Shown one piece after another: positions 56,591 to 60,883 of a stretch of DNA of 60,883 nucleotides. The stretch's first letter is position 1. Each line of letters begins with the position of its first letter. The notes under the pieces are model-generated. The model saw nothing but the letters and a program-made list of their open reading frames with translations, had not been told where the DNA came from and did no database searches. The translations under genes and the position numbers were made by a program. The DNA is from Candidatus Aldehydirespirator catecholifindens (GTDB taxonomy: Bacteria; Actinomycetota; Acidimicrobiia; Acidimicrobiales; Aldehydirespiratoraceae): the NCBI GenBank assembly GCA_028283245.1, contig JAPYNU010000064.1:1-60883 (forward strand). Direction: 5' to 3'.

Positions 56591-56619
56591 TCCTGCCTGA
56601 TGTCAACACGCTGGGCTAG
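56587..56619 (+). pseudogene. vapC remnant (first ten codons)
   Basis: The frame MILPDVNTLG ends at TAG. MILPDVN-x-L is the characteristic start of PIN-domain VapC toxins and carries the first catalytic Asp. The overlap with vapB (ATGA) is the usual vapBC arrangement. The rest of vapC is missing; the Type ISP gene starts inside the stub, at 56600. Confidence 0.65.
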
Positions 56620-59600
56620 TTTGAGTTTGGAGACTTTGCTGGGGTTGTTGCAGAGCCGTTTCAGTGACCCTCGGGCTCGCGGGGCGGCTTTTGAGCGCCT
56701 GCTGAAAGCTGCGTTTGAAGCTCATCCCGGTGAATACGGTCCGCTGCGTTTCAAGCGGGTCTGGCGTTGGAGTGAGTGGCCTGACTGTGAGCTTCACGGT
56801 TTCACCCGCAAAGACACCGGCATCGATCTGGTAGCTGAGCAGACCCCCGAGTGGGGTGGAGGACTTTGCGCTATTCAAGCGAAGTGCTATGAGCCGTCTG
56901 CCAGGATCGCCAAGCGTCACGTTGACTCGTTTATTTCTGAGTCGTCTGCGGGGTGTTTCACGAAGCGGTTGCTGGTAGTGACAGCAGAGTTAGGGGTCAA
57001 CGCTGAGAAGACCGTGAGAAACACCGAGCCGCATTGTGAAGTGCTGTATGGCGAACAACTTGATGAGTGGCCGGTGGACTGGGCAGCGTTTCTAGAGCGC
57101 CCTGAAGAGCTTCGTTTCACGGCACAGCGTTACACCCCGAAGCGGTATCAGTCTGAGGCTGTTGACAAGGTGGTGTCGGGACTGGCCGCAAACGACCGCG
57201 GCAAACTGATATTGCCTTGTGGCACCGGCAAATCGGTGGTGGCTTTATGGATCGCTGAGCGTATGGCTGGCGCTAGTGGTCGGGTGCTTTACCTAGTGCC
57301 GTCAATCGCATTGATGGGACAAACCATGCGCGAATGGGCTGCTCAGCGTGACCCTGAGATTTTGCATCGTTACATCGGTGTGTGCTCAGACACGAGAGCC
57401 GGCCGCAACGACGAAGACGCCGATTTGGTTGAGTTGGCAATGCCGGTTAGCACCGACGTTCAGCGTGTTGCTGCCTCAATATCACAAGAGTCTGATGCCA
57501 TGACGGTGTTGTTTTGCACGTATCAGTCTTTGAAGGTGATTGAACAGGCTCAAAGCACGGTTCGTGATGCTGGGGGTGTGGCGGATTTTGATTTGGTGAT
57601 TTGTGACGAGGCGCATCGCACTACTGGAGTGCATGAAACCGATGCTGGCAGCAGTTTCACGTTGATACATGATCGTGAGCGAATCACTGCTGCGAAGCGT
57701 TTGTATATGACTGCTACACCACGGGTTTACACCGACCGGGTTCACGCAAAAGTTCGCGAGCACAGCAACGACTTTGATGTGTATTCGATGGACGACGAAA
57801 CTGTCTATGGCCCTGAGCTTTACCGTATGAGCTTCGGGGCTGCTGTCAAGCAAGGTCATCTCAGCGATTATGAGGTTCTGGTGATTGCAGTGTCGGAGTT
57901 GCATGTCACCAGCTTGATGGGCAGCGACGTGTTGAACCTCCCCGGCGACGAAACCGCTACGGGGGGGGGGGGTCTCAGCGAATTACTACCGAGGAGGCTG
58001 TCAAGTTCGTGGGCTGCTGGGACGCGCTCGCGAGTCCCAGCACGCGCAGCCCTCACGGCCACACCACAGGAGCAGTTACAGCAAGCAGCTTGAGCGCCAG
58101 TCGGGCTATTGCGTTCACCAACACGATCAAGTCGTCGCAGCGTGTTGAGCAGCACTGGAATCGCATAGTCGACACGGTCACAACTGAGCAATCCAACATC
58201 GCTGCCGCCCGCGACCGGGCTGCTCAACTGATCGGGGATTCTGGGGCAAGCCCGGCGGCAACGCCCTCTGAGGTCGCGGCAGCGCCCTCTGAGGCAGCTG
58301 AGCCAGAAGAGTTGTTGCGCTTTGATGTGCGTCACACCGACGGCAGCAGCAACGCCTTGAAGCGCGCTCAGATATTGGGATGGCTGCGCAGCGGCGACCC
58401 CGACGGCGGTTGCCGTATCGTCACCAACGCCAAATGCTTGACCGAGGGCGTGGACGTACCAGCGCTTGACGCGGTTCTGTTCTTAGAGCCGAAACGTTCA
58501 CAGATTGATGTGGTGCAGGCCGTGGGTCGGGTGATGCGTCTCGCTGAGGGCAAGGAATGTGGTTATGTGGTGTTGCCGGTGGTGGTGCCTGCCGGGTTGA
58601 GCCTTGACGACGACAAGGTGCTGTCGGGTTCGGATTTTAAGGTGGTGTGGAGCGTGCTCAAGGCGCTGCGCTCCCACGATGAGCGCCTCGATGTGGCTAT
58701 CAACACGGCGGATCTCACAGGCAAGGTGCCGTTTCGGATTCTCAGACCCGGCGGTAGCGACACTGATACCGACACAGAATCCCATGCTGATGCTGAGATT
58801 GTGGGGCAGGCGCAGGGTCGTCTGCCGTTGTATGACGCTGTGGCATCAAAGGTGGTTGAGCAGTGCGGCGACCGCCAGTACTGGCATCGCTGGGGTGGCG
58901 AAGTAGCGCGCATTACTGCCACCATCGCTGAGCGGGCTCGCACCGCTTTACGGTCTAATCCTCGGCTGGCTGAAGCGTTTGAGGCTTTCGAGGCCGACAT
59001 GGCTGCCACGGTAGGTCGTCCGCTTGCGCAGGCGGATTTGGTTTCGATGCTGGCTCAGCATGTGGTGACCGTGCCGGTATTTGATGCGCTGTTCTCCGAA
59101 AGCGGTTTCGCTGATCGCAATCCGATGTCGAAAGCGCTCAACGAACTGCTTGACGAGTTCAAAGCCGCCGATGTGTTGTTGCGTGACGAGACCAGAGGCT
59201 TGGAGCGTTTCTACGCCAGCGTCGCCGACCGGTTGTCGGGCGCGGCTGATTCTGATACTCGCATCAAGGTGATGCTTGAGGTGTATGAGCAGTTTTTCGC
59301 TGCGGCGATGCCCGATGAAACCAAACGCCTCGGGATTGTTTACACGCCTGTGGAACTGGTGGACTTCATATTGTGTTCCGCGGATGCGGTGGCACGCGCC
59401 GAGTTTGGCAGGGGTCTCAGCGATGCTGGTGTCAACATTCTTGACCCGTTCACCGGCACCGGCACTTTCATCAACCGACTATTGACCCAGCGCGGCTCAG
59501 ACGGCGAGTTCCTGATACGCGACAGCGACCTAGCTCGCAAATTTCATGGCGAAGTGTCGGGGTTCGCTTCGAGTGGCACTACCGAGATCCACGCCAATGA

Positions 59601-60883
59601 GGTGGTGCTGCTGGCCTACTACCTGGCCGCACTCAAAATTGAGGAGGGTTATCGTGAGCGCACCGGCGGTTATGAGCCTTTCGGTGGGATCGTGCTCACC
59701 GACACGTTCCATCTTGGTGGTGACGGCAAGTTGCCCGGCACGGGTGCTATCGCCGACAACAGCGGACGAGCCAAAGCTCAAAACGAGTTGCCGATCCAGG
59801 TGATAGTCGCCAATCCGCCCTGGTCAGTAGGCCAGAAGTCCGCTGGCGACGACAACCCCAATATCTCGTACCCCCATATCGAGCAGCGCGTGCGTGACAC
59901 TTACGGTCGCCGTCATAAGCAAGTAACCGGCCGCGGCGCAGGCGGAAGCGCTGCTGGCAATCTGTATGTGGAGGCGATTCGCTGGGCTTCTGACCGGATT
60001 AGTGGCCCCGACGGTGATACAACCCTTCCTGGTGTGGTGGCATTCGTGCATCCGAATTCGCTGTCGAACGCCCCGTCTCTGGCCGGAATGCGCGCTGCCT
60101 TGCGCGACGAGTTCACCTCGGTCTATGTGGTCAACCTCCTGAGCGACCAATACAAAAGCGGAGAGGAACGACAGAAAGAAGGAGCGGTAATTTTTGAAGC
60201 CACTAGCGGAGTAGGCGGTTCGCGTAACGGAGTGCAGATCACTGTGCTGGTACGCAACCCAGCCAAAGATCTCACAGAGCCTGCCCGGCTGCGCTACGTC
60301 GAAGTGCCCGAATATTCAACGCTCAAACAGAAGTTCGATTGGCTTGCTGCACTTGGTGATGTGACAAGCGATGAGTTCGTGACGGTTGAACCCAACGATG
60401 CTCACGATTGGGTAAACATCACCGACGGCAGCTTTGAGAAACTTATGCCAGTCTGCGAATCTCGATCGACGGAGATTAGCAAGAGTGTTGTAAGCAATCA
60501 CGCTTCGGGAATCAAAACAAACTGCGATGTCTACGTCTATTCGTTTTCGCATGAGGGGTTATGCAAACGTATGACTCGTCTGATTGCTGCCTACACCGAA
60601 GCGCTAGAACTCGTGGAGGCTGGATGCACAGTTGAGGAATGCACCGACAACGATGAGCTTGACCGCATCAAGTGGACCGACACGCTCAAGCAGTCACTGC
60701 GTCGACGTGAGGAGATCATCTTTGATGAGTCCCGCATCCGTGAAGTGCTGTACCGACCGTTCACCAAGCTCTGGCTGTATGAGGACGACCGCATCTTGTC
60801 ATCGGTCAGGACCATCTCTGCGATGTTCCCCAAACCTCAACTAGAGGTTGACAACACACACACACACACACACACACACACAA
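56600..60883 (+). CDS. Type ISP single-chain restriction-modification enzyme, frame broken at a G12 tract, 3' end off the contig
   Basis: At least 1427 codons encode, in order: an Mrr-like nuclease (GIDLVAEQTP...AIQAKCYE, about 75-98); a superfamily 2 helicase/translocase (Walker A LPCGTGKS about 205, CDEAHRT about 334, MTATPRVY about 369, and after the break EGVDVPALD and QAVGRVMRLAEG); a helical coupler; and a gamma N6-adenine methylase (ILDPFTGTGTFINRLL about 946, VANPPWSVGQKS about 1069). The start of the target-recognition region follows. This is the LlaGI/LlaBIII architecture. As written, the first frame ends at 58093; the other frame is open from the G run to the contig end. A run of 10 or 13 G restores one protein. 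The ATG at 56600 lies inside a vapC stub, so a later start is possible. Confidence 0.88.
57961..57972 (+). repeat. Poly-G tract, twelve G, inside the Type ISP gene
   Basis: Twelve consecutive G lie between the two helicase lobes, where relatives have a loosely conserved linker. Downstream the frame GGGGSQRITTEEAVKFVGCW is clearly the continuation but is offset from the upstream frame. 10 or 13 G would be in frame. Confidence 0.95.
58255..58296 (+). repeat. 21-base in-frame tandem duplication in the Type ISP gene
   Basis: Two copies of GCGGCAACGCCCTCTGAGGTC-like sequence (58255-58275, 58276-58296), with few differences, encode an Ala/Pro/Ser/Glu-rich repeat in the second helicase lobe. Confidence 0.85.
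60854..60882 (+). repeat. (AC)n dinucleotide tract at the window end
   Basis: At least 14.5 AC repeats read as Thr-His in the current Type ISP frame. The sequence ends one base later. It is either a genuine microsatellite that stopped assembly or an assembly-end artefact. Confidence 0.8.

What the first reader, a model, noticed from the sequence alone, without database searches (positions are those of the whole stretch)
56600..60883. Possible phase-variable Type ISP restriction-modification gene switched by a G12 run
The gene has all domains of a single-chain translocating restriction enzyme in the right order, and coding potential is intact on both sides of the run. The only disruption is a frame offset exactly at a 12-G homopolymer placed in a permissive linker between helicase lobes. 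Length 10 or 13 would restore it. Homopolymer-switched Type I and III systems (phasevarions) are established in pathogens; switching of a nuclease-helicase-methylase fusion in an environmental actinobacterium would be new to me. Because nuclease and methylase are on one chain, the OFF state would lose both activities together, which avoids self-cutting. A sequencing length error at the G run is the main alternative.
Basis: partly seen in the sequence, partly recalled or inferred. Interest (0 to 1): 0.9.

Follow-up and report, generated by a model that had tools for sequence, protein, structure and literature searches.

The report
Frame-switched DNA-reading loops in restriction enzyme
A bacterial DNA-cutting and DNA-marking enzyme gene carries unstable repeats that can switch it on or off and, judging from its close relatives, also choose which of several alternative DNA-reading loops is built by shifting the reading frame, a multi-position specificity dial rather than a simple switch.

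Summary
In detail: 56600-60882 is a Type ISP-like restriction-modification gene whose frame breaks exactly at G12 (57961-57972). The six closest homologues all have G9-G12 there; five of them, like the window, are out of frame. A second repeat, (AC)14.5 at 60854-60882, lies where the contig ends, inside the recognition domain. In 29 of 29 homologous loci with module arrays, a repeat of unit 1, 2, 4 or 5 lies near this position. Beyond it, homologous ~40-residue modules sit in successive reading frames: 63 of 65 neighbours step by one frame, and 76 of 87 exit frames reach a module before the first stop. The module corresponds to LlaGI 1345-1379, which includes Loop VI, a published base-reading loop, the part most conserved within and most divergent between module classes. 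Up to three repeats in series serve up to seven modules; the rest of the domain is usually a separate ORF. The window's genome has an analogous array in a Type IIG gene. Best reading: a repeat-driven, multi-state specificity selector behind an on/off switch. Not shown: length variation within a population, methylation, or the window's own modules, which the assembly lacks.

The parts
56600..57960 (+). N-terminal part: Mrr-type nuclease (about 56747-57094) and helicase lobe 1 (ResIII, about 57131-57724)
   Evidence: Pfam PF13156 E=7.9e-30, PF04851 E=6.1e-21; PADLOC PDLC03597
57961..57972 (+). SSR0: G12 tract at the frame offset between helicase lobes; proposed on/off switch
   Evidence: G9-G12 at the same place in 6 of 6 closest homologues, L118-L123
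57973..60853 (+). C-terminal part in the offset frame: helicase lobe 2 (about 58318-58542), ISP coupler (58879-59250), N6 adenine methyltransferase (from about 59269), N-terminal third of the target recognition domain (60490-60837, Type_ISP_C model 3-108 of 342)
   Evidence: Pfam; phmmer to LlaGI 5ffj E=3.6e-151, ending at chain residue 1173
58009..58011 (+). In-frame GTG after the tract; possible internal start of a nuclease-less product (weak candidate)
   Evidence: GAGGAGG at 57991-57997, 11 nt upstream; the same string in L119 and L123 but not in L121, the three homologues shown
60854..60882 (+). SSR1: (AC)14.5 at the contig end inside the target recognition domain; proposed frame selector of C-terminal modules, which lie beyond the contig
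   Evidence: a repeat within -60 to +260 nt of the homologous position in 29 of 29 module-array loci

Best explanation
The gene is a split, repeat-bearing relative of Type ISP restriction-modification enzymes with at least two slippage-prone repeats. SSR0 (G12) switches the whole nuclease-helicase-methylase chain on or off by frame. SSR1, (AC)n in the recognition domain, sets the exit frame. In homologues most exit frames lead to a different module of about 40 residues followed by a stop, or read on to a further repeat that offers more modules. Each module supplies the beta-hairpin and Loop VI of the recognition domain. The rest of the domain usually comes from a separate ORF, in part of the loci started at the last module's stop (ATGA type). 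Repeat slippage would therefore swap the base-reading loop and so the DNA target. Shown: the tracts and their position, modules in alternating frames, stop placement, protein-level constraint in each module's frame, and correspondence of the module to LlaGI Loop VI. Inferred: that tract lengths change in cells, that the split domain assembles, that the target changes, and that the window's missing continuation resembles its relatives.
For: (1) A repeat near the end of the constant part in 29 of 29 module-array loci, against 1 of 46 loci with one or no recognised module and at least 700 nt beyond that point; units 1, 2, 4, 5 nt in 10, 14, 4, 1 loci, never 3 or 6. (2) Neighbouring modules without a repeat between them: 63 of 65 step by the same frame shift, 2 the other way, 0 share a frame; with a repeat between, steps are mixed (7, 6, 2); in 41 of 42 segments all modules differ in frame. 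(3) 76 of 87 exit frames reach a module before the first stop, mostly within 8 residues of it; base composition predicts about 92 stops in their 3,764 linker codons. (4) Divergence is highest at codon position 3 of the module's own frame in all six classes with four or more members. (5) The module profile matches LlaGI chain 1181-1215, weakly (E=0.028); a single-chain relative aligns through it. Adding 164 puts H, G, Q on H1368, G1372, Q1373, which read base pair +3 (PMC4872093). (6) Loop columns: identity 0.73 within, 0.21 between classes; rest 0.60 and 0.43. (7) A C-terminal ORF carries Type_ISP_C 165-341; its start overlaps the last module's stop in 8 of 21 loci. (8) Similar arrays in a Type IIG gene of the window's genome and 9 homologues.
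Against: The window's own modules and C-terminal ORF were not found in its genome, so its SSR1 role rests on homologues. 11 of 87 exit frames reach no recognised module (one frame each of L124, L130, L138, L141, L143, L144, L145, L148, L151, L152, L163); one is a contig end, most are unexplained. In L133 one stop falls inside the module match. 6 of 108 modules have a stop inside the profile match, and the two-member class 6 does not show the position-3 excess. In five of 21 loci (L119, L120, L122, L123, L132) the C-terminal ORF starts 131-603 nt after the last module's stop. In the Type IIG locus L251 modules 4 and 5 repeat earlier frames and would not be reached from that repeat; L255 has no repeat of the searched size. 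The module profile was built from loci that overlap the test set. No within-species tract variation or methylome was available. Most homologues look like short-read metagenome bins (inferred from contig names), where tract lengths are unreliable. The structure prediction failed (mean pLDDT 33.6).
Confidence: 0.75

Rival explanations
1. Plain on/off phase variation: only the G12 tract matters, and the dinucleotide repeat and downstream repeats are tolerated noise near the end of the gene.
For: G tract in all 7 members of the clade, 6 of 7 offset; on/off phase-variable R-M enzymes are documented (passages).
Against: The repeat at the recognition-domain position is far wider (29 of 29 array loci) than the G12 (7 members), and it is followed by conserved modules in alternating frames.
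Confidence: 0.1
2. Sequencing or assembly error: the G-run length is wrong, the gene is simply intact, and the contig end at (AC)n is an assembly break.
For: Short-read assemblies miscount homopolymers (general knowledge); three of the 24 own tracts end exactly at a contig end (C11, C59, C83).
Against: The tract lies at the same place in all six closest homologues, in different lengths. (TC)20 occurs at the SSR1 position in a 3.27-Mb contig (L140). Regular frames and stops in the modules cannot come from miscounted runs.
Confidence: 0.07
3. Decayed tandem duplications: the modules are remnants of duplicated domain pieces, with frames set at random by indels.
For: Modules are paralogous and tandem.
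Against: Frame steps are not random (63, 2, 0 of 65), the stop mostly follows a module, codon-position-3 divergence dominates in the six larger classes, and module classes with their loops recur across loci.
Confidence: 0.03
4. Slippage at the RNA or ribosome level: the repeats make polymerase or ribosome slip, so that one cell makes several module variants at once without DNA change.
For: Homopolymer tracts can cause such slippage (general knowledge, not tested here).
Against: Repeats of 4 and 5 nt units ((GTCC)9, (ACCG)19, (GAAG)9, (GGAGC)12) near the same place fit DNA slippage better.
Confidence: 0.1
5. Restriction-only switch: the tract turns the fused enzyme into a methylase-only product by internal start at GTG 58009, so that the off state keeps modification.
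For: In-frame GTG with GAGGAGG upstream; an ORF with the same start MGCWDAL in L084.
Against: The string is also what the codons of the EEAVK stretch give; it is absent in L121. The product would lack helicase lobe 1.
Confidence: 0.08

Closest known systems
LlaGI / LlaBIII (Type ISP restriction-modification enzymes; PDB 5ffj, 4xqk; PMC4872093: outline, passages, sections 16 and 18 seen)
   Same: Same domain order (Mrr nuclease, SF2 helicase, coupler, N6 methylase, recognition domain); constant part aligns to LlaGI with E=3.6e-151; module corresponds to the hairpin plus Loop VI region.
   Different: In 46 of 46 non-array homologues checked the C-terminal part continues in the same frame (module itself recognised in frame in 39). 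Here repeats, several alternative modules in different frames and mostly a separate C-terminal ORF replace that continuity.
H. pylori JHP1272 / HP1353-HP1354 (Hpy99XIV, HpyAXVI), Type IIG with two homopolymers (PMC3936762, passages seen)
   Same: First tract switches the gene on or off, a later tract changes the recognised sequence by frame; single-chain R-M enzyme.
   Different: Two specificity states, made by adding one extra C-terminal recognition piece. Here up to three exits per repeat, repeats in series, modules that replace one another, and a mostly split C-terminal part; another R-M type.
C-terminal phase variation in Helicobacter canadensis and Neisseria gonorrhoeae (PMC2823697, PMC5320596, passages seen)
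   Same: A late repeat changes the C-terminal sequence among three frames.
   Different: There the alternative tails mostly differ by a few residues or fuse to the next gene; no homologous functional module in each frame and no repeat cascade was described in the passages seen.
Phase-variable hsdS (NgoAV homonucleotide tract: title seen in a reference list; duplicated hsdS that switch by recombination: PMC7394358, search listing)
   Same: Changes DNA specificity of an R-M system.
   Different: A separate specificity subunit, altered by one tract or by recombination, not by choice among modules in three frames (details recalled).

Membership tests
Type ISP restriction-modification enzyme | Mrr-family nuclease and SF2 helicase lobe 1 at the N-terminus | tested here: met
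   PF13156, PF04851
Type ISP restriction-modification enzyme | helicase lobe 2, ISP coupler, N6 methylase, Type_ISP_C in this order | tested here: met
   PF00271, PF22240, PF02384 (at its cut-off), PF18135 positions 3-108 only, because the contig ends; LlaGI match
Type ISP restriction-modification enzyme | one polypeptide | tested here: not met
   In the window the frame is broken at G12. In most array homologues with a detected C-terminal ORF that ORF is separate (18 of 21). It is therefore described as a split relative of Type ISP, not as a plain member.
Type ISP restriction-modification enzyme | ATP-driven translocation and cleavage, adenine methylation | not testable with these tools
   needs protein or methylome data
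SSR-mediated translational phase variation | repeat in the coding region with a unit not divisible by 3 | tested here: met
   G12, (AC)14.5; units 1, 2, 4, 5 at SSR1 in 29 of 29 array loci
SSR-mediated translational phase variation | tract length varies within a clone or population | not testable with these tools
   no reads available; only different lengths between species
Phasevarion | switching methylase changes expression of a set of genes | not tested
   no methylome or expression data
H. pylori-type two-tract specificity switch (Hpy99XIV) | one tract for on/off, a later tract for specificity | tested here: inconclusive
   both tracts present; the effect on specificity is inferred from Loop VI
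H. pylori-type two-tract specificity switch (Hpy99XIV) | specificity changes by adding one extra recognition piece to a complete protein | tested here: not met
   in the homologues alternative modules exclude one another by frame and stop; the remainder of the domain is mostly a separate ORF

The most novel reading that the evidence does not exclude
A general genetic device: a frame-multiplexed cassette array. A slippage-prone repeat is a three-way selector among homologous protein modules written in three reading frames. Repeats in series form a decision cascade (2+2+3 modules in L122). A separate ORF, often coupled to the last stop, supplies the rest of the domain. It rewires the DNA-reading loop of restriction-modification enzymes without recombinases. 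It serves at least two different enzyme families (Type ISP and Type IIG) in the same lineage of Acidimicrobiia, with smaller Type ISP arrays in Gemmatimonadota and Pseudomonadota.
Probability: 0.65. Interest if true: 0.95.

Novelty: new variant of a known kind. Interest (0 to 1): 0.88.

Why it matters
Known slippage switches mostly turn a gene on or off, or toggle two states. This would be a compact multi-state dial: one gene, several DNA specificities, chosen by repeat length and inherited until the next slip. It would let a clonal population carry many restriction and methylation patterns at once, a plausible answer to phages. It also points to a natural, interchangeable base-reading loop in Type ISP enzymes; the abstract of PMC4872093 calls engineering restriction enzymes with new specificity an unaccomplished challenge. 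It is directly testable by methylome sequencing. Gene finders would tend to annotate such loci as broken genes, so they may be widely overlooked (inference).

Tried and rejected
Window continuation in its own genome: the C-terminal ORF of L084 and the module profile gave no match, so the contig break at SSR1 could not be closed. A first regular expression for modules found only one chance match in the own stretches and the window; a wider pattern and a profile were used afterwards. Structure prediction of the methylase plus recognition part with a module gave mean pLDDT 33.6 and was not used; no fold search was run. Viral contigs: 37 relatives, best segment at most 54% identical; their downstream regions were not analysed. 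A plasmid search found 560 records, all under 60%; these were not analysed further. Literature: searches; no paper on frame-selected modules in a Type ISP enzyme or on slippage repeats in sponge-symbiont R-M genes appeared in the listings. Only open-licence PMC papers are held and listings were cut, so this is not proof of absence.

Considered and dropped: random decay, pure on/off, miscounted homopolymer (see rivals). L189 has a G10 near the end of the constant part and is the 1 of 46 exception. Five loci with under 700 nt beyond the constant part (L126, L134, L135, L190, L191) were left out of the non-array count (46 + 29 + 5 = 80) and, with the window, out of the change count on the tree. 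From only nine of the longer matches were fetched; shorter or weaker ones (for example G012:C13, G015:C115, G007:C20, G016:C22) were not.
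Full report
OBSERVATION. The window is one whole contig (60,883 bp) of a 2.59-Mb, 104-contig draft genome. ORF 56600-58093 (+) encodes an Mrr-type nuclease and helicase lobe 1. The frame from 57970 to the contig end encodes helicase lobe 2, the ISP coupler, an N6 methylase (score at its cut-off) and the first third of the Type ISP recognition domain. 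PADLOC model PDLC03597 covers both pieces in order, and the second piece matches LlaGI (5ffj) with E=3.6e-151. The frame break lies at G12, 57961-57972, a run found in 0 of 100 dinucleotide shuffles.

THE G12 TRACT. A scan of 84,980 species genomes gave 529 relatives, of which the best 80 loci were kept. The six closest (L118-L123; Acidimicrobiia or Acidimicrobiaceae metagenome bins) carry G9-G12 at the same place. The frames before and after it are offset in five of the six and agree in L119. The other 74 have no G/C run of 7 or more there; one of them, L144, is offset without a tract. Window and these six form one clade (SH-aLRT 100, quick tree). The tract is thus a derived, kept feature of one clade, consistent with an on/off switch. 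A length error in any one assembly cannot be excluded.

THE SECOND REPEAT AND THE MODULES. Sixteen homologues were fetched with flanks from related genomes. In 14 of 16 a repeat lies within about 30 nt of where the window's sequence runs out; in L095 a C9 lies 219 nt further, and L097 has none. The repeats differ in kind: (GA)n, (AC)n, (AG)n, (CA)n, (TC)n, (GTCC)n, G or C runs. Beyond them the reading frames end in different but related peptides of about 40 residues, each followed by a stop. A profile of 45 such peptides (A1) was then run on the 80 loci, many of which are the same loci, so the two sets are not independent. Twenty-nine loci carry two or more modules (domain E up to 0.01). A repeat lies within -60 to +260 nt of the end of the constant part in 29 of these 29, and in 1 of 46 loci with one or no recognised module and at least 700 nt beyond that point. 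The repeat unit is 1, 2, 4 or 5 nt (10, 14, 4, 1 loci), never 3 or 6. In the 46 non-array loci the C-terminal part continues in the same frame in 46 of 46, with the module itself recognised in frame in 39.

ARE THE FRAMES MEANINGFUL? Of 65 neighbouring module pairs with no repeat between them, 63 step by the same one-frame shift, 2 step the other way and none share a frame. With a repeat between, 7 step one way, 6 the other and 2 share a frame. All modules differ in frame in 41 of 42 segments; the exception, L139, has five modules without a detected repeat between. Of 87 exit frames after the first repeat, 76 reach a module before the first stop and 11 do not (listed under evidence against). 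Most have 8 residues or fewer from module end to stop; exceptions are L145 (18), one frame each of L148 and L163 that runs 263 residues further, two frames that leave the contig (L124, L138), and L133, where a stop falls inside one module match. The linkers of the 76 hold 3,764 codons, in which base composition predicts about 92 stops. They contain none by construction of the count, so the figure only illustrates how unusual the open paths are. In the six classes with four or more members, divergence is lowest at codon position 2 and highest at position 3 of the module's own frame; the two-member class 6 does not show this.

WHAT THE MODULE IS. The module profile matches LlaGI chain residues 1181-1215 (E=0.028, weak) and 7lo5 at the corresponding place (E=0.44, not significant). 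A single-chain relative, L172, aligns to LlaGI through this region within one stretch (whole-protein E=1.8e-252). The window ends at Type_ISP_C position 108, the separate C-terminal ORF starts at 165, and L172 covers 2-338 without a break. One LlaGI construct in the paper lacks residues 2-165; that 5ffj is this construct is my inference from its length, so 164 was added to the chain numbers. This places H1368, G1372 and Q1373 exactly on H, G and Q of the matched peptide, which supports the offset. The paper assigns these residues to Loop VI (1365-1374), reading base pair +3, and 1347-1358 to a hairpin thought to be structural (PMC4872093; passages, sections 16 and 18). Across 82 modules in six classes, the columns between D1366 and R1375 are 0.73 identical within classes and 0.21 between. 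The other columns are 0.60 and 0.43. Classes were defined by overall similarity, so only the contrast between loop and rest is informative. The residue at position 1368 is C/S, H/N, A, H, K or C, by class. That is the pattern expected of alternative base readers.

THE SPLIT DOMAIN. A downstream match to the rest of Type_ISP_C was found in 21 of the 29 array loci. In 8 of the 21 a start codon in its frame overlaps the last module's stop (ATGA, GTGA or TTGA). In two (L130, L136) it starts 4 nt after. In five it lies 131-603 nt away, in three (L145, L148, L163) one frame runs through into it, and L125, L131 and L144 fit none of these. How the free C-terminal part pairs with the main chain is inferred, not shown.

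ORIGIN. On a tree of the constant part (81 rows, quick search, SH-aLRT only), the array label needs 6 changes with all rows and 3 after the five short loci and the window are set aside. Arrays fill one large, mostly Acidimicrobiia clade that includes the window's gene, plus L148 (Gemmatimonadota) and L163 (Thiotrichales) with tetranucleotide repeats. Whether L148 and L163 are separate gains is not settled. The module profile matched in 10 of 41 related genomes. Matches outside the sixteen homologous loci were two in G002 and a second small array in G007 about 1 kb downstream of the first; first-look candidates were capped at 150 in many genomes. That many of these bins come from sponges is recalled from bin names, not checked.

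A SECOND ENZYME FAMILY. In the window's own genome (G000:C61, L041) an Eco57I-type Type IIG gene (PDLC03620) has two G13 tracts, one of them beside an assembly gap. After the clean one, all three frames end in a homologous module, and the third module's stop overlaps the ATG of the next ORF. Relatives with a match: 14 of 37 genomes, the window's own included. Nine of the longer matches, from eight relatives, were fetched. Of the ten loci including L041, six have three modules in three successive frames, L251 has five (the last two repeat earlier frames), and L253, L255 and L257 have two. L255 has no repeat of the searched size. In five of ten the C-terminal match begins one base before the last module's stop. 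A further repeat about 500 nt upstream, with apparent further modules in L041, was seen but not analysed. The principle is therefore not confined to Type ISP.

HOW IT MOST LIKELY WORKS. Slippage at SSR0 decides whether the chain is made. Slippage at SSR1 and later repeats decides which loop module ends the main chain. The C-terminal ORF supplies the rest of the domain. The chosen Loop VI changes the recognised base pair near +3 and perhaps neighbours. Nuclease and methylase share the recognition domain, so both change together. The steps from tract change to new target are inference.

KNOWN OR NEW. H. pylori Type IIG enzymes already combine an on/off homopolymer with a second one that changes specificity (PMC3936762, passages). 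C-terminal phase variation among three frames is described for H. canadensis and N. gonorrhoeae (PMC2823697, PMC5320596, passages). A phase-variable Type IIG enzyme of Campylobacter jejuni was seen only in a search listing (PMC4889913). New here, as far as the searches listed under Tried and rejected show: homologous modules in each frame, repeats in series, replacement of a defined base-reading loop, and a mostly split domain, in two enzyme families. I rate it a new variant of a known kind.

LIMITS. No reads, methylomes or protein data. The window's own module array is missing. Most homologues look like short-read bins. The predicted structure failed.

Noticed in passing
L041 (G000:C61:88000-98500), minus strand, about C61:91700-97174: Type IIG (Eco57I) gene of the same genome with three-frame modules after a G13 tract, ATGA-overlapping C-terminal ORF, a G11 tract inside that ORF and a second copy of it downstream; nine homologous loci in eight relatives mostly behave alike.
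   Followed up: partly
G000: C4:1296, C59:21189, C67:87064, C75:34848, C80:29900: Other long G tracts lie in or beside R-M or defence genes: HmaB-like methylase, a Type IIG gene cut by the contig end, HsdM, a DUF499/HmaC ATPase, a second Type ISP-like gene. Of 10 tract-associated ORFs searched (the Type IIG one included), 6 hit R-M or defence families, 1 a carboxyltransferase, 3 nothing; the remaining tracts were not searched.
   Followed up: partly
G000:C67:8448-8458: C11 tract 58 nt inside the start of an open frame for a carboxyltransferase (PF01039): a possible metabolic on/off gene.
   Followed up: no
window 393-402: G10 tract outside any ORF of 50 residues or more, upstream of a 649-residue ORF that starts at 542; it could vary promoter spacing.
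   Followed up: no
window 53727-55586 (-): AbiEii-type nucleotidyltransferase (PF08843) with an adjacent 223-residue ORF without Pfam match, beside the R-M gene.
   Followed up: no
L120 and L121 (G003:C6 and G003:C23): One genome carries two paralogous array genes with different repeats ((GA)20 and (AC)16) and partly different modules.
   Followed up: no
L145, L148, L163: Small arrays whose modules keep an FPRY- or FPRW-type ending like ordinary Type ISP enzymes, with one frame that runs into the C-terminal part: possible intermediates or separate origins.
   Followed up: partly
order-level sample of 298 genomes: Runs of ten G occur in 165 of 298 genomes of the order, in very uneven numbers; some of the listed places are at contig ends and may be sequencing artefacts.
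   Followed up: no
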